Source: Serratia proteamaculans
Lineage (GTDB): Bacteria; Pseudomonadota; Gammaproteobacteria; Enterobacterales; Enterobacteriaceae
Direction: 5' to 3'
Length of the DNA: 64,000 nucleotides
Assembly: GCF_013337185.1 (NCBI RefSeq)
Contig: NZ_SWDE01000001.1
Coordinates: forward strand, 1,860,001-1,924,000
Shown: positions 9,164 to 64,000 of the stretch, one piece after another
How positions within the stretch are numbered: the stretch's first letter is position 1
Layout of the letters: each line of letters starts with the position of its first letter
Position numbers and translations under genes: made by a program
Notes under the pieces: generated by a model
Databases searched by the model: none
The model's input: the letters and a program-made list of their open reading frames with translations, nothing else
Told to the model about the DNA's origin: nothing

Positions 9164-10828
9164 ATGTGTTCTATTTTCGGTGTGCTCGATCTAAAGTCCG
9201 ATCCCGTTGAACTGCGTAAGAAAGCGCTGGAGCTGTCCCGTCTGATGCGCCATCGCGGCCCGGACTGGTCCGGCGTTTACGCCAGCGATAAAGCCATTCT
9301 GGTGCATGAGCGCCTGTCGATTGTCGACGTCAACAATGGCGCCCAACCGCTGTACAACGCTGCGCACACCCACGTTCTGGCGGTTAACGGTGAAATTTAC
9401 AACCACCAGGCGCTGCGCCAGCAACTTAGCGATCGCTATGAGTTCCAGACCGGTTCCGACTGTGAGGTGATCCTGGCGCTGTATCAGGAAAAAGGCACTG
9501 ACTTCCTCGACGATCTGCAGGGGATGTTCGCCTTTGCCCTGTACGACGCCGAGAAAGACGCCTACCTGATTGGCCGCGACCATTTGGGCATTATCCCGCT
9601 GTACATGGGCCATGATGAATTCGGCAACCTGTATGTGGCCTCTGAAATGAAAGCGCTGGTGCCGGTTTGTCGCACCATCAAAGAATTCCCGGCGGGCAGC
9701 TACCTGTGGAGCCAGGACGGTGAAATTCGCGAATACTACCAGCGTGACTGGTTCGATTACGATGCGGTTAAAGACAACGTCACCGACGCCAACGCCCTGC
9801 GCAACGCACTGGAAGACTCGGTGAAAAGCCACCTGATGTCCGACGTTCCTTACGGCGTGCTGCTGTCTGGCGGCCTGGACTCTTCGGTGATCTCCGCCAT
9901 TACCAAAAAGTACGCCGCACGCCGCGTGGAAGATCAAGAGCGCAGCGAAGCCTGGTGGCCGCAACTGCACTCCTTCGCCGTCGGCCTGGAAGGTTCACCG
10001 GATCTGCGCGCTGCGCAGGAAGTGGCCAACCACCTGGGCACCGTACACCATGAAATTCATTTCACCGTGCAGGAAGGCCTGGACGCCATTCGCGACGTGA
10101 TTTATCACATCGAAACCTATGACGTCACCACCATTCGCGCCTCCACCCCGATGTACCTGATGTCACGCAAGATCAAGGCGATGGGTATCAAGATGGTGCT
10201 GTCTGGGGAAGGGGCGGACGAAGTGTTCGGCGGTTACCTGTACTTCCATAAGGCACCGGATGCTCGTGAGTTCCACGACGAAACCGTGCGCAAACTGCTG
10301 GCCCTGCATATGTTTGACTGCGCGCGCGCCAACAAGGCGATGTCCGCCTGGGGTGTGGAAGCTCGCGTGCCGTTCCTGGATAAAAAATTCCTCGACGTGG
10401 CGATGCGCATCAACCCGAAAGACAAAATGTGCGGCAATGGCAAAATGGAAAAACATATCCTGCGTGAATGTTTTGAGTCCTATCTGCCGGCCAGCGTGGC
10501 CTGGCGCCAGAAAGAGCAGTTCTCCGACGGCGTTGGCTACAGCTGGATCGACACCTTGAAAGAAGTCGCTGCCAAGCAGATCAGCGATCAACAGCTCGAA
10601 ACCGCACGTTTCCGCTTCCCATACAACACGCCGAGCTCCAAGGAAGGCTACCTGTATCGCGAAATTTTCGAAGAGTTGTTCCCATTGCCAAGCGCGGCCG
10701 AATGCGTGCCTGGCGGCCCGTCAGTGGCCTGCTCTTCAGCGAAAGCCATCGAATGGGATGAGTCGTTCAAAAAGATGGACGATCCTTCTGGTCGTGCAGT
10801 CGGCGTTCACCAGTCCGCCTACAAATAA
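9164..10828 (+). CDS. asnB: Asparagine synthetase B, glutamine-hydrolysing
   Basis: Makes asparagine from aspartate, ATP and glutamine. The N-terminal class II amidotransferase domain begins Met-Cys-Ser-Ile-Phe, so the cysteine becomes the N-terminal nucleophile after Met removal. The ATP-pyrophosphatase P-loop SGGLDSSVI lies about residue 232. Length is 554 residues, the usual size. TTAGGAGAG precedes the ATG. It is monocistronic, with a strong terminator 22 bp downstream. Confidence 0.97.
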   Translation: MCSIFGVLDLKSDPVELRKKALELSRLMRHRGPDWSGVYASDKAILVHERLSIVDVNNGAQPLYNAAHTHVLAVNGEIYNHQALRQQLSDRYEFQTGSDCEVILALYQEKGTDFLDDLQGMFAFALYDAEKDAYLIGRDHLGIIPLYMGHDEFGNLYVASEMKALVPVCRTIKEFPAGSYLWSQDGEIREYYQRDWFDYDAVKDNVTDANALRNALEDSVKSHLMSDVPYGVLLSGGLDSSVISAITKKYAARRVEDQERSEAWWPQLHSFAVGLEGSPDLRAAQEVANHLGTVHHEIHFTVQEGLDAIRDVIYHIETYDVTTIRASTPMYLMSRKIKAMGIKMVLSGEGADEVFGGYLYFHKAPDAREFHDETVRKLLALHMFDCARANKAMSAWGVEARVPFLDKKFLDVAMRINPKDKMCGNGKMEKHILRECFESYLPASVAWRQKEQFSDGVGYSWIDTLKEVAAKQISDQQLETARFRFPYNTPSSKEGYLYREIFEELFPLPSAAECVPGGPSVACSSAKAIEWDESFKKMDDPSGRAVGVHQSAYK

Positions 10829-10850
10829 TCGCCGGGCGTTTTCTTCCCTG

Positions 10851-10875
10851 GGCGGACCTTCGGGTCCGCCTTTTT
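10851..10875 (+). terminator. Rho-independent terminator of asnB
   Basis: GGCGGACC-TTCG-GGTCCGCC, an 8-bp GC-rich stem with a TTCG tetraloop, is followed by five T. Confidence 0.95.
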
Positions 10876-10980
10876 GTTGATGTTTTCAACCATTAATTGT
10901 CGGAATTGGTGATTTTATCGCCATACTGTTCACAACCCAGACAAACAACACATCCGGTCGCTTTTTCGGGAAAAAACTTG

Positions 10981-11009
10981 TTGACGCAAAACGGCCATAT
11001 ACGCATAAT
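10981..11009 (+). promoter_or_regulatory. Stringent-type promoter of the tRNA cluster
   Basis: -35 TTGACG (10981-10986), exactly 17 bp, then -10 CATAAT (11004-11009) and a GC-rich discriminator GCGCCCC. That discriminator is typical of rRNA/tRNA promoters controlled by ppGpp and DksA. Confidence 0.85.
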
Positions 11010-11048
11010 GCGCCCCGCAACGCCGATGAAGGTTGCGCGAAAAAAGAT

Positions 11049-11125
11049 GGCTACGTAGCTCAGCTGGTTAGAGCACATCACTCATAATGATGGGGTCACA
11101 GGTTCAAATCCCGTCGTAGCCACCA
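11049..11125 (+). tRNA. metT: tRNA-Met (CAT), elongator
   Basis: 77-nt cloverleaf with encoded CCA. The acceptor arms GGCTACG and CGTAGCC pair, and the anticodon loop CTCATAA carries CAT. First of six clustered tRNA genes ordered as E. coli metT-leuW-glnU-glnW-metU-glnV. Confidence 0.96.
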
Positions 11126-11135
11126 TCTTTTTTTT

Positions 11136-11220
11136 GCGGGAGTGGCGAAATTGGTAGACGCACTAGATTTAGGTTCTAGCGCCGCAAGGTGTGCGAGTTC
11201 AAGTCTCGCCTCCCGCACCA
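11136..11220 (+). tRNA. leuW: tRNA-Leu (TAG)
   Basis: 85-nt class II tRNA with a long variable arm and encoded CCA. Arms GCGGGAG and CTCCCGC pair; anticodon loop TTTAGGT gives TAG. Confidence 0.96.
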
Positions 11221-11250
11221 TTTCTTATCATCGGGTTGTAAGGCATCAGA

Positions 11251-11325
11251 TGGGGTATCGCCAAGCGGTAAGGCACTGGTTTTTGATACCAGCATTCCCT
11301 GGTTCGAATCCAGGTACCCCAGCCA
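11251..11325 (+). tRNA. glnU: tRNA-Gln (TTG), copy 1
   Basis: 75-nt tRNA. Arms TGGGGTA and TACCCCA pair; anticodon loop TTTTGAT gives TTG; CCA is encoded. Identical to the next copy. Confidence 0.96.
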
Positions 11326-11372
11326 TTTTTTAAATGGTTTGATGCAGTAAGAAGAAGTTGAAAATTTGTTGA

Positions 11373-11447
11373 TGGGGTATCGCCAAGCGGTAAGGCACTG
11401 GTTTTTGATACCAGCATTCCCTGGTTCGAATCCAGGTACCCCAGCCA
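11373..11447 (+). tRNA. glnW: tRNA-Gln (TTG), copy 2
   Basis: Exact 75-nt repeat of the copy at 11251; a tandem duplication kept as in E. coli glnU/glnW. Confidence 0.96.
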
Positions 11448-11484
11448 TCAACATCGTTGACTTTTAAAGTAAAATATCAAAAAT

Positions 11485-11561
11485 GGCTACGTAGCTCAGC
11501 TGGTTAGAGCACATCACTCATAATGATGGGGTCACAGGTTCAAATCCCGTCGTAGCCACCA
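11485..11561 (+). tRNA. metU: tRNA-Met (CAT), elongator, copy 2
   Basis: Exact 77-nt repeat of the tRNA-Met at 11049, with encoded CCA. Confidence 0.96.
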
Positions 11562-11580
11562 TATTTTACTGTTATACCAT

Positions 11581-11655
11581 TGGGGTGTCGCCAAGCGGTA
11601 AGGCTCTGGTTTCTGATACCAGCATACCCAGGTTCGAATCCTGGCACCCCAGCCA
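11581..11655 (+). tRNA. glnV: tRNA-Gln (CTG)
   Basis: 75-nt tRNA; anticodon loop TTCTGAT gives CTG. Last gene of the cluster here; E. coli has one more Gln copy. Confidence 0.96.
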
Positions 11656-11664
11656 CATTTAGAA

Positions 11665-11688
11665 AAGCCCGCTTCGGCGGGCTTTTTG
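11665..11688 (+). terminator. Terminator of the tRNA operon
   Basis: AAAGCCCGC-TTCG-GCGGGCTTT stem with TTCG loop and a T-run, 9 bp after the last tRNA. The symmetric A/T flanks suggest it also works for ubiF from the other side. Confidence 0.93.
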
Positions 11689-11739
11689 CTATTTTGCATT
11701 TGGTCAATAACCGGGCCCAGCAAGCTGAACCCATTTAAG

Positions 11740-12921
11740 TTATAAACCCAGCGCGTACTTCAACGCATTTTCCTTTAGCTTCCCCGCCCGCTGGGCCGCC
11801 ATCAACGCAAGATTGCGTGCCACGCTTAAGGGTGCCAAATTATTGCTAAAGGCGGTGTAAAACAGATCCATGCCGCTTTGCATCAGCAAATTATCGGTAC
11901 GGCGACGACGCTGATAACGCATCAGCACCGCTTCACTGCTCCAGTCCTCACCCTGTTCCCGCGCCTCACTCAATACCGCCAGCAAGGCGTCCACATCGCG
12001 ATACCCCAGGTTCACGCCCTGCCCGGCTAACGGATTAATGGTGTGCGCCGCGTCGCCGAGCAATGCCAGCCCCGGTAACACATAGCGCTGTGCATGGCGG
12101 CGCGCCAGCGGGAAAGATCCGGCGGCATGCACTTTCACCGTCCCCAAACGTGCGGGAAACGCCTCTGCGATTTCGCGCTCAAGCAGTGCTGGCGGCATCA
12201 CCTGCAACTGACGGATACGCTGCGGACTGTCGTACCACACCAGTGAAGCCCACTGATCATACAGCGGCAGAAACGCGCGTGGGCCGGAAGGGAAAAACTG
12301 CTGCCAGGTTACATCCTGCTGCGGCGCACCGGTCTCAACGGTGATCAGCATGCAGGACTGACGGTACTGCCAGCCGCTGGTACCGATGGCCGCCAGATTA
12401 CGCACCTGCGAGTTGGCACCGTCAGCCCCGACCACCAAACGCGCCTGTAGCGTCTCAGAAGAGTCCAGTGTCAATTGCCAATGGTCATCGCCCCGTTGCA
12501 GCGAACGCAGCCTGGCGGGGCAACAGAGCGTCAGATTGTCGCACTGCTCGAGTTGCTGCCACAGCGCCAGTTGCAAAATGCGGTTTTCCACCATAAAGCC
12601 CAGTTCCGGCAGGCCCAGTGAAGCGGCGTCAAACGCCACCCGCGCCGACGCCCACTCCCAGGTTTCCAACCGGCGGTACGGCGCGGTGCGCATCGCTTGC
12701 ACCGCCGGCCAGGCGCCGAGCTGTTTGAGCAACCCTACCGAGGTGCAGCCAATCGCGGAAATACGCAAGTCCGGCGGGCTTTGCACATCGAACGCTTGCG
12801 GCGCCTGATGTTCCAGCAATGCCACCGACCAACCGGCCTGCGCCAGCCCCAGCGCGGCGGCCGCGCCAACCATGCCACCGCCTACCACCACCGCGTCATA
12901 CCGTTTTTGAGAAGTGTTCAT
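11740..12921 (-). CDS. ubiF: 3-demethoxyubiquinol 3-hydroxylase (ubiquinone C6 hydroxylation)
   Basis: FAD-dependent monooxygenase of the ubiquinone pathway, acting at the membrane. The N-terminal dinucleotide fold AVVVGGGMVGAAAALGLAQ lies near residues 10-28. The second FAD motif LALLGDAAHTINPLAGQGVNLGYRDVDAL and the LVVGADGANSQVRNLA segment are family hallmarks. From the ATG at 12921 (MNTSQKRYD) the protein has 393 residues, close to E. coli UbiF; an in-frame ATG at 12978 would add 19 unconserved residues. The C-terminus LKYALGL matches E. coli. It is monocistronic and convergent with the tRNA operon. Confidence 0.94.
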   Translation of the reverse strand: MNTSQKRYDAVVVGGGMVGAAAALGLAQAGWSVALLEHQAPQAFDVQSPPDLRISAIGCTSVGLLKQLGAWPAVQAMRTAPYRRLETWEWASARVAFDAASLGLPELGFMVENRILQLALWQQLEQCDNLTLCCPARLRSLQRGDDHWQLTLDSSETLQARLVVGADGANSQVRNLAAIGTSGWQYRQSCMLITVETGAPQQDVTWQQFFPSGPRAFLPLYDQWASLVWYDSPQRIRQLQVMPPALLEREIAEAFPARLGTVKVHAAGSFPLARRHAQRYVLPGLALLGDAAHTINPLAGQGVNLGYRDVDALLAVLSEAREQGEDWSSEAVLMRYQRRRRTDNLLMQSGMDLFYTAFSNNLAPLSVARNLALMAAQRAGKLKENALKYALGL

Positions 12922-58189: not shown

Positions 58190-58771
58190 TTATAAACTAA
58201 TGACGCACACTACCGGTAATGTATTCAAAATAATTCCCCAGGTAATACTGGAACGTAAAATAGTCTCGGCGGCTATTGCAGGCGCTATTTTATCCGTTAG
58301 TCCTTCAGCCTTTAAATATTCAGCCAAACGTTCGAGATTGCCATTAAATTCCTTCATCAGTGACTTTAACGCCTTTGGCAACAATGCCACCAGCGAAGGA
58401 ATTTCAACGGGTTTAAACCCACGCAACAACTCGACCAGTTCGCCGTAACGAAGACCGCTAAAGATATTCTTCAGTAGAGAGTTATCCAATTTCGGGGCCA
58501 GCAGGTGTTGAATATCCGGTTCAAGCAAGCACCAAAATGCCCTGGTTGCGTGACCTTTTCCCATCTCGTCCAGGGTCGATAGAATATCCTTTACGTTTAA
58601 TTCATTAATGGTCTGCCGTATTGCAGTTTGGTTAGCCAACCATACCGGACCGCAGCATTTCCCGACGTAGGGCGAGTAACCAAGGATATCCTTAACTAAT
58701 TCAAAATTATTGCTCAACAACGCCCCCAACTCCTGGCGGCTTGCAGTTTCCATTCTGGCTTTAAATACCAT
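58190..58771 (-). CDS. Uncharacterised alpha-helical protein, 193 residues
   Basis: I do not recognise this protein. It is predicted all helical, leucine-rich (LLRGFKPVEIPSLVALLPKA), with a hydrophobic C-terminus (ITWGIILNTLPVVCVISL) that could be a membrane tail. No catalytic motif is visible; two adjacent cysteines lie near residue 38. GAGAG precedes the ATG. It is at the left edge of the A+T-rich block that carries the SIR2 gene. Confidence 0.65.
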   Translation of the reverse strand: MVFKARMETASRQELGALLSNNFELVKDILGYSPYVGKCCGPVWLANQTAIRQTINELNVKDILSTLDEMGKGHATRAFWCLLEPDIQHLLAPKLDNSLLKNIFSGLRYGELVELLRGFKPVEIPSLVALLPKALKSLMKEFNGNLERLAEYLKAEGLTDKIAPAIAAETILRSSITWGIILNTLPVVCVISL

Positions 58772-59249
58772 GACACTCTCGGCTCAGTCCCTGTAGATGC
58801 GCAGAACCATATCAATACAGTCGTATTTAAAAAAGACACTTTGCCAATATTTACAAAGCTGCACGGTGCCCGATCAGGGCCCTACAAGATTCGATTGCAT
58901 CAAGTATTGATATGTTTTATATGGATAAAATCGTGTTCGATAAAACTTATACCAACGTTTATTCCAACAGATAAATTTGTCAGAAAATACAACCCATTAT
59001 CGATGGGACAACATGCTCGGGTACCCGAGGCCATTTCCATAGGCAGTTTTATGATGTGAGCTCACCTGGTTGATGCAACTTATCCTTAAGCAATAATAGC
59101 TACTATTGAAATTCAAAATGTGAATCGTGCTGCATCTATTTTGAGACATGCCACTGAAATAACAAAGAATTTCCACCATAGGTATATCCATAACATCGTG
59201 GAAAATAGTAAAATCTGAGAATCAATCAATACTTAGATAAGTCGGGCTC
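58772..59249. other. A+T-rich spacer upstream of the SIR2 gene
   Basis: 478 bp without a convincing gene; a 72-codon plus-strand frame at 58841 lacks a ribosome site and protein-like composition. Composition is clearly lower in G+C than the core. No tRNA end, integrase or flanking direct repeat is visible. The SIR2 promoter must lie near 59150-59240. Confidence 0.55.
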
Positions 59250-62200
59250 ATGAGATTCCATGCCGAAGGTCCAGCTATACCGGACATCCTCCTAGAACGC
59301 TGTGATGCAGGTAGGGTAGTATTTCTATGTGGTGCCGGAGTTTCGTTGCCTTCAGGGATGCCAACCTTTGTAGACCTCACTCGGTACGTAATTGAATATT
59401 TTGACCCACCACACGACTCAGAAATCATGGCTGCATTTCGCCCATGGCTTCACGACCAATCTTCGGCAAATGTCCCCCTCGACCAAATTTTCAACCTTCT
59501 TCATCTGGAATATGGCAAAGATGAGGTAAATGCTTTGGTTACAAAGCGTCTAGGGGCTTCAAGGGCTGACATAGAGGTTGGACGAGAGCATTCTCTGATT
59601 AAACGAATCTCCTCAAACCAGAGTGGAACTCCACAGATTGTCACGACGAACTTTGACCGACTGTTCGAGGTTAACCAAGAGCAAAATAACCTAACTCGAT
59701 ATGTTCCGCCTGCTTTCCCAGATCTGAATTTCGGTTCAACAATTGAGGGAATTACATATCTTCACGGTCGTCTGGTCAACGAAAACGCTGTAAGTCATCC
59801 TTATGTGCTGAGTAGTGCAGACTTTGGACGAGCTTACCTTTCAGAAGGATGGGCGACCAACTTTATCAAGCTTCTTCTGGAACGATACATCGTTGTTTTG
59901 GTCGGTTACCAGGCAGAAGACCCACCAGTTAAGTACCTCCTTCAAGGTCTCAATCATGATGGTCAGTTTGATCGTTCCAGACTTTTTGCATTTGATCGTG
60001 GCCTTGCCGAGGAGATTGAAGCCAAATGGCGTGACAGAGGAGTCACTGCCATAGCCTATTCCGATCATCCGCTCCTTTGGAAGAGTATGGAAGCATGGGC
60101 TGAGCGAGCAGATAATCCGCGTCGGTGGCGAGCTTCTGTGATCGCTAAAAGTCAACAAGACCCGAAAGTTCTAGCTCCGTACGAACGTGGTCAAGTTGCT
60201 CATATACTACGCACTGCACAAGGTGCGAAATTGTTCTCTGAAGCTATTCCTCGCCCCCATCCAGAATGGATTTGTGTGATGGATGCGAATATTCGGTCAG
60301 CCAAACAGAAAAAAAGATATTCCGAGCTTGATGACAACGATGCAGAGACCTTCGATCCGCAAGAGGCTTATGGACTCGATGACGATCGGCAAGATATCTC
60401 TGACGATGAACGCAAACATGGGGTCAGTAACGATAATCTCCTTGAATGGCGTGGCGAAGACGATAACCCGTCAGATTACCATCGCTTGGCTGGAGGATTT
60501 GAGACAATCCCGAAAAGGCTAGGTCATATCATGACTTGGTTTAGTGAATCTCTTGATAGCCCGGTAATGGCTTGGTGGGCTATTCGAAAAATTGGGCTTC
60601 ATCCGCTACTGCTGCAGAAGCTTGAACGCAACATTGAGTTTTCAGCATCTACCCACAAACGTGCCCGTCATCTATGGAGCTTAATTCTCGAATACCATAA
60701 TGATCCCCGTAATCGCCGATATGACGTCGACTGGCACGACTTAAAAGCTCGAATTAAAACCCAAGGCTGGACAGCTGGTGTTCTACGAGAATTTCGTAGG
60801 GTTATGACACCACGGTTGGAGATAAAATCGCCATATGGTTTGGGAGAAGTCAGACCGCCAAGTGACACTTGGGAGGAGACCCATTTTAGCAAACTAGGTC
60901 AATTTGAAGTTGTTTTCACCGAAAGACACGATGTGGATTTAGACGTACCCGACAATGTATTGCTGCAGGTATTTAGTGCCCTAGAAGAGCAACTAATCAT
61001 TGCCGCAGGATTGCTGGAGGATATTGAGACTTTCTACTTCCCAACTCCAAGCTGTTATCCAGAGCGTGCAGTGGAAGGAGAAGAGTATTTCTCGAAAGGT
61101 GCTGATGTACTGGTATGGTTTGTACAACTTTTTGACCGAGTCGCTGGAAAGTGGCCAGAGTTGGCCAATGCGCACGCAACAACTTGGCCAGTAGCAGAGC
61201 CATTTTTCTTCCGAAAACTTAGATTGTATGCCTTCAGTAAAACAGACGTCTTTAGGGCTGATCGTGTAGTCAACGAAGTTTTTTCTTTAGAACAAAATAG
61301 CTTCTGGGACACAAATATTACCCGCGAACTTTTATTTTTGCTGACAGATCGATGGGAAGAATTCTCCCAAAAGAACCAGAATCAAATTATCGAGCGCATT
61401 CTGACAGACCCATTTCAATTACCTTATGATACGTCTGATGACGAACTCCCGAAAGCTAGGGAAGTGTTAGCTGCAAGATACACTCGCTATCTCGAATTAC
61501 ATGGTTGTGAACTGAGCGCGATTCATAGTGATCGTCTCAACACAATGATCAAAGGTATTCCTGATTGGGATGACGGCTGGGCTACCTCTGTGGTCATTAG
61601 TTGGGGGTCTCGATCGGCCTGGGTCGGTACGGACGAAAAAACTGATTTAGTCTTAGACCTTCCTCTAAATAAGATAATCCCAAAAGCAAAAGAGGCGCTA
61701 CAGCGGGAGGATTACCAATTTACGAGGAAACGTCCCTTTGTTGGTTTGATCAAAGAAAATCCACGTAAAGCATTGGCTGCACTTACGATTGCGGCGAAAA
61801 ATGGCGATTATCCTAAGGAATTCTGGTCTCCAATGATAAGTGAATTACCTGCAGATATTAAACCAAGGCTGAGACGAGTGTTCCTTAATCGCATAACGCA
61901 GTTACCAGCGACAGCTTTAGTCGAACTACGACATGTATTAAGTAGTTGGCTTGAACAAAACTTAGTTATGACGATTAAGTTTGATGATGGTCTTGGTTGG
62001 GCAGTTTACGATCATGTCATCGGAGGCATTCTGAGTGGTGGAGCTAATGCTACGGAAAGTGGTTTCGGCGAAATTTTCCGGAATGGAGAGGTAGTTATAC
62101 AGTCCAGGCGCACATTCGGCCACGCAATCAACGGCCCTGTAGGCAAGTGTGCCCAAGCTCTTTTTCAAGCAATACCAGGAGAGGAAGCGGAAGCTGGTTC

Positions 62201-63062
62201 GCTTATTCCGGATTCTATTAAGTATCGCCTTGAGCGTCTTTTTATAGCACCCGGAGAAGGTGCAGACCATGCTATAGCTATAACGGCTCGTAATCTAAAT
62301 TGGCTAATGTTTGTTGATCCTGTATGGGTAAAGGAAAGGATTATACCGATGTTGGATTTAAAGCATCCAGCTGCAGAACCGGCATGGAATGGTTATCTTT
62401 ATAGTGAAGGTATGCCTTCAAATGCAGTAGCTGAGCTTATCAAACCTAGTTTTCTTAACCTTTTCACTTGGCTCGAGCATCTGTCTTGGGAAAAAGACCT
62501 TTCAGTTCGTGCCTCTCAATGGCTTGGTTTAATGAGAGTGTTTCGCTCTGATGAGTCATGTGGCCTGTCGAGAAATGAAATGCGCTTCGTTTTGCGATCA
62601 TTATCAGATGAGGCGAGAAATCGTTTTATTTCTTGGTTGGGTTTGGTTGGGCAAAAAAACGATAATGGCTGGATCAAACATGTTATCCCATTAATCAGTG
62701 AGGACTGGCCCAAAGAACGCCGATACAGGACAACGGCTTCGGTGAAGGCGTGGATAGGTTTACTTGATGACACCGAAGATAACTTTCCTGCTGTCTACGA
62801 AGCAGTGAAGACACTCTTGGTGCCAATCGAGACATTTGATTACCAGTTCTACCGTTTCACTCGTGATTTCGGTGGTAAAAAACCAATTACCATGCTTTTT
62901 CCTACAGTGACTCTTGATCTAATGGATAAGATAACACCAAAGAGGCTTACCCGACCCCCAGGTGAGTTACAGAAGATACTTGGCCTAATTGAAGAGACAG
63001 AACCAAACCTAATCAAGGATTCGCGGTACTTACGGCTTATTGAGCTTGTTGAGAAAAGCTAG
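59250..63062 (+). CDS. Large SIR2-domain protein, probable anti-phage defence sirtuin (Dsr1-like)
   Basis: 1270 residues. An N-terminal SIR2 NAD-binding domain (about 20-290) shows GAGVSLPSG at 28-36, TTNFDRLFE at 132-140 (the NFD triad), the catalytic-type histidine in YLHGRL (H172), and LVGYQAEDPPV at 217-227. The remaining ~950 residues are helical, solenoid-like, with a middle stretch (AEPFFFRKLRLYAF near 650) like the DUF4020 region of long defence sirtuins. No P-loop NTPase is seen. Known relatives deplete NAD after phage sensing and stop growth. A+T-rich, transferred-looking. No clear ribosome site before the ATG. Confidence 0.82.
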   Translation: MRFHAEGPAIPDILLERCDAGRVVFLCGAGVSLPSGMPTFVDLTRYVIEYFDPPHDSEIMAAFRPWLHDQSSANVPLDQIFNLLHLEYGKDEVNALVTKRLGASRADIEVGREHSLIKRISSNQSGTPQIVTTNFDRLFEVNQEQNNLTRYVPPAFPDLNFGSTIEGITYLHGRLVNENAVSHPYVLSSADFGRAYLSEGWATNFIKLLLERYIVVLVGYQAEDPPVKYLLQGLNHDGQFDRSRLFAFDRGLAEEIEAKWRDRGVTAIAYSDHPLLWKSMEAWAERADNPRRWRASVIAKSQQDPKVLAPYERGQVAHILRTAQGAKLFSEAIPRPHPEWICVMDANIRSAKQKKRYSELDDNDAETFDPQEAYGLDDDRQDISDDERKHGVSNDNLLEWRGEDDNPSDYHRLAGGFETIPKRLGHIMTWFSESLDSPVMAWWAIRKIGLHPLLLQKLERNIEFSASTHKRARHLWSLILEYHNDPRNRRYDVDWHDLKARIKTQGWTAGVLREFRRVMTPRLEIKSPYGLGEVRPPSDTWEETHFSKLGQFEVVFTERHDVDLDVPDNVLLQVFSALEEQLIIAAGLLEDIETFYFPTPSCYPERAVEGEEYFSKGADVLVWFVQLFDRVAGKWPELANAHATTWPVAEPFFFRKLRLYAFSKTDVFRADRVVNEVFSLEQNSFWDTNITRELLFLLTDRWEEFSQKNQNQIIERILTDPFQLPYDTSDDELPKAREVLAARYTRYLELHGCELSAIHSDRLNTMIKGIPDWDDGWATSVVISWGSRSAWVGTDEKTDLVLDLPLNKIIPKAKEALQREDYQFTRKRPFVGLIKENPRKALAALTIAAKNGDYPKEFWSPMISELPADIKPRLRRVFLNRITQLPATALVELRHVLSSWLEQNLVMTIKFDDGLGWAVYDHVIGGILSGGANATESGFGEIFRNGEVVIQSRRTFGHAINGPVGKCAQALFQAIPGEEAEAGSLIPDSIKYRLERLFIAPGEGADHAIAITARNLNWLMFVDPVWVKERIIPMLDLKHPAAEPAWNGYLYSEGMPSNAVAELIKPSFLNLFTWLEHLSWEKDLSVRASQWLGLMRVFRSDESCGLSRNEMRFVLRSLSDEARNRFISWLGLVGQKNDNGWIKHVIPLISEDWPKERRYRTTASVKAWIGLLDDTEDNFPAVYEAVKTLLVPIETFDYQFYRFTRDFGGKKPITMLFPTVTLDLMDKITPKRLTRPPGELQKILGLIEETEPNLIKDSRYLRLIELVEKS

Positions 63063-63230
63063 CGCATACAATTGTAACAATAGTTATTAATCATCGCTCA
63101 ACTAAATATTTTCGGTATACAAGAGCGAGCTAACTCAGGTGCTGGCTAAGAGCGAGGTGCAGGCGTGAACATTTGGCCAAGGAGACGTCTTTAACCGTTC
63201 CGTCTGACAACGCGAGTAATTTTGACGAGC

Positions 63231-63953
63231 TTATTCGAATTGCTCAAGTATGCCATGTAACCCAATAAACTTTATTTTTAAATCATGGTCATGCCTAAGA
63301 ACAGTCTCTAGTGAGTTCCGTTCATAAATTATTGGTTGCGCTTGTAATGAGCCGTTCCATGATGGCAAAAGTAGAATGGCGGATGTTTCCAAATCAATAC
63401 CCCACCAATCGTTAATATAGCTATTTAAGAAATTAACAAGAGCTTTTATCGCAATAAAAGCATCCTTATCAGTATATGTTTCAGGATCAAGGGATATGCC
63501 TGATAACTTACTTTTTACTGCTTCGAAGTTGCCATTAGACTGATGTAGGTAGACAGTCTTGCCTTCACTTGGTGTAGTCTCTATTGTATCAGATATCAAT
63601 TTAATCTTAGGGTGTACTAATGCATTACGTTGTTCTAATAGTTCTCTGATTATTTGTGTTTGAATGACTCCTCGAGGCAGAGCTGTTTCTTTGTGCCACT
63701 GAAGGGTGTAGTCTAATTTATCAAGTGTAGAGAACCTATCAATTTGGCCTTTTATCTTTTGCGTTATTTCGATAGACGATAAAAAGCAGTTAGCCGCAGC
63801 TTCAAGTGCATAGTTAATTGAAAGAACACTCGATTTCGCAAGCGTCTTTTTGATGTGTGTTTTTTGTTCCATTACGGATAACTCATAAAGAGTTATTGCA
63901 TCAGAAAATATTTCAAAGAAACTATTCTTTGTTATTTCCACTGTTCTTATCAC
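63231..63953 (-). CDS. Helical protein with HEPN-type R-x4-H motif
   Basis: 240 residues from a GTG start at 63953 behind AAGGATAG. The helical N-terminal half holds RNALVH at residues 109-114, the R-x4-H pattern (with Asn after Arg) of HEPN ribonucleases and HEPN-like defence proteins. The C-terminal half is unassigned. Convergent with the SIR2 gene over 168 bp of non-coding DNA. A cut at the window edge prevents seeing further partners. A HEPN call rests on one motif plus helical context. Confidence 0.6.
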   Translation of the reverse strand: MIRTVEITKNSFFEIFSDAITLYELSVMEQKTHIKKTLAKSSVLSINYALEAAANCFLSSIEITQKIKGQIDRFSTLDKLDYTLQWHKETALPRGVIQTQIIRELLEQRNALVHPKIKLISDTIETTPSEGKTVYLHQSNGNFEAVKSKLSGISLDPETYTDKDAFIAIKALVNFLNSYINDWWGIDLETSAILLLPSWNGSLQAQPIIYERNSLETVLRHDHDLKIKFIGLHGILEQFE

Positions 63954-64000
63954 GAGCTATCCTTATTGTGTAATGTAGATATAATCGATAGTGAAAGTGC

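What the first reader, a model, noticed from the sequence alone, without database searches (positions are those of the whole stretch)
59250..63062. Long SIR2-domain protein, likely a single-gene NAD-depleting phage defence
Seen: a complete SIR2 triad set (GAGVS, TTNFD, H172) at the N-terminus of a 1270-residue protein, in A+T-rich DNA unlike the flanking core. Known: long SIR2 proteins (Dsr1, Dsr2, ThsA, Avs5) act by NAD depletion after phage sensing. Inference: this is a Dsr1/DUF4020-like sirtuin; the ~950-residue solenoid would be the phage sensor and may recognise a trigger not yet described.
Basis: partly seen in the sequence, partly recalled or inferred. Interest (0 to 1): 0.8.

Follow-up and report, generated by a model that had tools for sequence, protein, structure and literature searches.

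The report
Divergent Dsr1-type phage-defence sirtuin gene
This gene very probably makes a bacterial immune protein that breaks down the cell's NAD when a phage infects; it is a distant branch of a known defence family, carried on a mobile island beside a second known defence system, so it is useful but not surprising.

The parts
59250..63062 (+). Dsr1-like SIR2 protein, 1270 aa
   Evidence: ORF; PADLOC Dsr1 E=7.7e-86; NCBIfam Dsr1 360 bits, cut-off 1400
59250..60119 (+). SIR2 NADase domain, residues about 1-290 (GAGVS 28-32, TTNFD 132-136, H172)
60120..63059 (+). C-terminal alpha-solenoid, residues 291-1270, presumed phage sensor; three stretches within about 355-419 have pLDDT under 50
   Evidence: AlphaFold2 models; generic ARM/HEAT matches only in the rows shown; less conserved than SIR2
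58881..64000 (.). left part of the A+T-rich island inside the window (the island continues to about window-equivalent 68.9 kb at tRNA-Arg)
   Evidence: homology to same-genus genome G397 ends at window 58880 and resumes near the tRNA; composition
63231..63953 (-). p240, 240-aa gene of unknown family, convergent with the SIR2 gene; beside it in the close copies seen
   Evidence: no match in Pfam, PADLOC, NCBIfam or PHROGs at the limits used

Best explanation
A Dsr1-type antiphage sirtuin of a diverged subfamily. The C-terminal solenoid (residues 291-1270) holds the N-terminal SIR2 domain inactive, probably in an oligomer; during infection it binds a phage-made protein, the SIR2 pocket opens, and NAD+ hydrolysis that needs N134, D136 and H172 starves phage replication. 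Shown here: the ORF, family membership at superfamily level, kept catalytic residues, predicted SIR2 and solenoid folds, purifying selection, a mobile island with a known defence system. Inferred: NADase activity, oligomerisation, sensing by the solenoid, identity of the trigger, and whether the cell dies or survives.
Against: No activity or phage data. NCBIfam equivalog cut-off not met. The model is weak around the active site (pLDDT block means 55-70 for residues 131-180), so the pocket itself is not shown. The solenoid taken alone does not list DSR2 among the rows shown, so DSR2-like sensing is an analogy. Several relatives (L008, L009, L020) have no obvious defence neighbour. 0 of 50,697 phage records match by tblastn.
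Confidence: 0.85

Rival explanations
1. It is part of a multi-gene system: SIR2, p240, OloB and OloA work together, with p240 or the Olokun pair modulating or triggering the sirtuin.
For: The four-gene block in the same order is found in the window genome, same-genus genome G394 (L096), Yersinia proxima (L005) and E. coli. p240 and OloB relatives occur in exactly the same 5 of 5426 E. coli genomes as the SIR2 gene; OloA in those 5 plus a 23% piece in a sixth. All 9 close p240 copies seen (the window's own and 8 others at about 80-96%) lie beside an intact or broken copy of this SIR2 gene. In the order sample only the window genome (1 of 394) has an OloB match.
Against: Relatives at 84-85% identity in Edaphovirga (L004) and Y. 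nurmii (L006) have no p240 or Olokun match on the stretch held, but RADAR-like genes; L008, L009, L098 and L103 also lack them on the stretches held. p240 at 53% identity occurs without the SIR2 gene on the stretches held of a V. parahaemolyticus plasmid and genome G160. The E. coli copies carry one element type, so they are not independent. SIR2 and p240 are convergent, so they share no operon.
Confidence: 0.15
2. It stops phages without killing the cell, as reported for DSR1, so 'abortive infection by NAD depletion' would be the wrong label even though the SIR2 site is active.
For: [quoted passage not shown] 2022 (PMC10952713, passages read).
Against: The window protein is only 21-23% identical to three Dsr1-annotated proteins; the outcome need not carry over. 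The primary paper was not read.
Confidence: 0.3
3. It is a housekeeping or regulatory NAD-dependent protein deacylase with a scaffold domain.
For: Weak NCBIfam hits to NAD-dependent deacylases, E about 0.1.
Against: Those hits cover about 20 residues around GAGVS and are far below cut-off. The domain falls in Pfam SIR2_2, the subfamily of ThsA, DSR1 and DSR2 (PMC12700824, passage read). Patchy, mobile distribution.
Confidence: 0.04

Closest known systems
Dsr1 (defense-associated sirtuin 1; NCBIfam NF041818, PADLOC Dsr1)
   Same: Near-equal length (1263-1279 aa in three annotated proteins), N-terminal SIR2_2, alignable end to end, kept NAD-site motifs
   Different: 21-23% identity; 360 bits against the equivalog cut-off of 1400; separate clade with long branches; 15-28% identity per block to L012 after residue 425
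DSR2 (Bacillus; PDB 8wyb and others)
   Same: N-terminal SIR2 fold followed by a long alpha-solenoid; equivalent catalytic N, D and H
   Different: Shorter (1005 aa); the family profile matches only about 30 residues of it, E=0.003; the solenoid alone does not list DSR2; the tail-tube trigger was shown for DSR2, not for this protein
ThsA, Avs5, KomC and SIR2-HerA effectors
   Same: SIR2 domain fold
   Different: Other sensor parts or partner subunits (partly recalled: SLOG in ThsA; STAND ATPase in Avs5)
Olokun (OloA/OloB), the neighbouring system
   Same: Shares the island; its genes match PADLOC OloA and OloB
   Different: A separate system; OloA here is 860 aa against a 596-position model

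Membership tests
Dsr1, broad sense (PADLOC) | Profile match over N- and C-terminal parts | tested here: met
   PDLC04167 E=7.7e-86, best stretch 653-1268; PDLC02183 E=1.4e-76, best stretch 1-340. Dsr1-annotated L012 as control scores 643 and 1616 bits, the window 287 and 256. PADLOC's own thresholds were not at hand
Dsr1, strict sense (NCBIfam equivalog NF041818) | Score at or above 1400 bits | tested here: not met
   360.1 bits; Dsr1-annotated controls 1674 and 2098
Dsr1 | N-terminal SIR2 with GAGxS, TTNxD and HG motifs | tested here: met
   No Pfam DUF4020 match, but two Dsr1-annotated proteins also have none; no paper of the library holds 'DUF4020'
Dsr1 | Antiphage activity that depends on the SIR2 site | not testable with these tools
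   needs phage challenge
DSR2 | Match over the whole protein including the tail-tube-binding C-terminal part | tested here: inconclusive
   SIR2 part matches; solenoid alone does not list DSR2 in the 50 rows shown of either search
ThsA / Avs5 | SLOG (ThsA) or STAND ATPase (Avs5) domain (SLOG recalled) | tested here: inconclusive
   No such Pfam domain at E<=1; no dedicated search of the C-terminal part
Olokun (neighbour genes) | Adjacent OloA and OloB (definition recalled) | tested here: met
   OloA E=3.8e-69, OloB E=2.5e-52, adjacent with overlapping ORFs on the minus strand

The most novel reading that the evidence does not exclude
A deep sister branch of Dsr1 whose solenoid senses a phage protein other than those known, and which in enterobacteria acts as part of one four-gene mobile cassette (SIR2, p240, OloB, OloA), p240 being a new accessory or regulator of the sirtuin.
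Probability: 0.15. Interest if true: 0.6.

Novelty: new member of a known kind. Interest (0 to 1): 0.3.

Why it matters
No structure of a Dsr1-type protein turned up in the PDB copy by sequence: no match for the window protein, and only partial SIR2 or weak matches for the family profile. The subfamily is a natural contrast set: the SIR2 part stays close while the solenoid drifts, so comparing members against the same phages could show what Dsr1-type proteins sense. The recurring block with Olokun and p240 also gives a concrete case for testing whether neighbouring defence systems only travel together or co-operate.

Full report
What is there. The window's plus strand carries one uninterrupted frame from ATG 59250 to the stop ending at 63062, 1270 residues. 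It has an N-terminal SIR2_2 domain (E=3.9e-13) with GAGVS at 28-32, TTNFD at 132-136 and LHG with H172. In the two alignments (20 rows; 21 rows; 34 distinct sequences together) G28, A29, G30, S32, T132, T133, N134, F135, D136, H172 and G173 are invariant. The gene is 45.5% G+C; 551 same-length tiles in the first 58.9 kb of the window have a minimum of 50.7%. Codon comparison gives dN/dS 0.15-0.17 against five close relatives, so the protein is maintained.

Which family. Dsr1 profiles match both ends of the protein: PADLOC E=7.7e-86 (best stretch 653-1268) and 1.4e-76 (best stretch 1-340), NCBIfam Dsr1 E=2.5e-107. The NCBIfam score, 360 bits, is far below the equivalog cut-off of 1400, which Dsr1-annotated proteins from an E. 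coli and a Shewanella plasmid pass with 1674 and 2098; four other relatives score 338-400. Identity to three Dsr1-annotated proteins is 21-23% over the whole length. With the midpoint root, a Rhizobium protein and a clade with Vibrio and Zymomonas lie between it and Dsr1 proper (the tool warns of long branches). So it is Dsr1-like at superfamily level and a distinct subfamily below that. DUF4020 decides nothing here, since Dsr1-annotated proteins do not match it either.

Surroundings. The low-G+C stretch runs beyond the window. The window genome continues with p240 (63231-63953, minus strand), OloB and OloA (L002:8041-9555 and 9458-12040, minus; PADLOC E=2.5e-52 and 3.8e-69), an integrase fragment (L002:12518-12895, Phage_int_M E=5.3e-19), tRNA-Arg(tct) and a gene that I read as folD. 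In same-genus genome G413 the left-flank homology ends at window 58572 and resumes at window-equivalent 68894, with about 0.84 kb of other DNA between; in G397 it runs to 58880 and is followed closely by a copy of the tRNA end. The island is thus about 10 kb. The same site holds about 1 kb in G415 and about 15 kb in G411, so it behaves like a tRNA hot spot.

Relatives and their neighbours. The SIR2-p240-OloB-OloA block recurs in same-genus genome G394 on another contig (L096), in Yersinia proxima (L005) and in E. coli (L085-L087); in L085 an integrase and tRNA-Thr follow it. Of 5426 E. coli genomes 5 have the SIR2 gene (4 over at least 80% of the query), the same 5 have p240 and OloB, and OloA is in those 5 plus a 23% piece in a sixth. 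Of the four full-length E. coli copies three have no internal stop, two of these being annotated from a later start, and one has a stop at codon 642; the fifth is cut short next to IS1. The E. hormaechei plasmid copy lacks its first part and is interrupted by an IS3-family transposase gene. In Edaphovirga (L004) genes that match RdrA (E=1.8e-29) and RdrB (E=1.3e-25) follow, and Y. nurmii (L006) has alike ORFs there. The E. coli island holds PDC-M09 genes (L085) and, in L086, zorD. A relative at 64% identity lies between tail-fibre/baseplate genes and tail-completion/terminator genes on a viral contig (L103), and another (L102) has an integrase next to it. By contrast Alcanivorax (L008), Iodobacter (L009) and Niveispirillum (L020) show no obvious defence neighbour. 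The gene is patchy: own genome counted, 3 of 30 genomes of the genus (one only 30% identical) and 9 of 394 of the order, partial and distant matches included.

How it probably works. DSR2 forms an autoinhibited tetramer, binds the phage tail-tube protein with its middle and C-terminal parts, and then hydrolyses NAD; N133, H171, D135 and W59 matter for activity (PMC10981675, passages and section 10; PMC10973363 and PMC11087589, passages). The window protein keeps the N, H and D equivalents and the two-part layout. A review reports that DSR1 blocks phages without killing the cell (PMC10952713, passages; Garb et al. 2022 and Gao et al. 2020 were not read). I therefore expect infection-triggered NAD hydrolysis with an unknown trigger, and leave open whether the cell dies.

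Limits. No experiment. Neighbours were scanned with PADLOC only in chosen loci (2 beside the window gene, 4, 10), so the contexts are examples, not rates. The E. coli copies carry one element type, so their co-occurrence is not independent evidence of joint function.

Verdict. A sound observation, a sound interpretation, and a known kind of system. What is new is the diverged subfamily and its recurring company.

Noticed in passing
window 63231-63953 (-): p240: no family match. The 8 other close copies seen (about 80-96%) all lie beside this SIR2 gene; 53% relatives on a V. parahaemolyticus plasmid (L088) and in genome G160 (L135) do not, on the stretches held.
   Followed up: partly
L002:8041-12040 (just past the window end): Olokun pair; OloA is 860 aa against a 596-position model, and the OloB C-terminus also matches LmuA (E=2.8e-10).
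   Followed up: partly
L002:12518-13051: Integrase fragment beside tRNA-Arg(tct); in same-genus genomes the site holds about 1 kb or longer other DNA, in G397 and G412 with extra copies of the tRNA end.
   Followed up: partly
L004:9944-15384, L006:4945-9137: RADAR-like RdrA/RdrB genes directly downstream of the SIR2 relative in Edaphovirga and, by alike ORFs, in Yersinia nurmii.
   Followed up: partly
L085:4082-8931: Candidate defence genes PDC-M09A/B and an 840-aa protein with only a weak PDC-M09B match, in the E. coli island that carries the SIR2 block.
   Followed up: no
L005 versus window: Between the window and Y. proxima the SIR2 protein is 85% identical while p240, OloB and OloA are 96, 94 and 91%; against E. 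coli L085 all four are 80-82%. This hints at recombination or faster change in the SIR2 gene.
   Followed up: no
window 58190-58771 (-): 193-aa gene at the island edge with a below-cut-off MgtE_N match (E=0.0017); a full copy in G397 and part of one in G413, no match on the stretches held of G411, G415 and G394.
   Followed up: partly
L014:1378-3177: AAA-type ATPase (HEC-01A, GajA and Old profiles) next to the Rhizobium relative on a conjugative plasmid.
   Followed up: no
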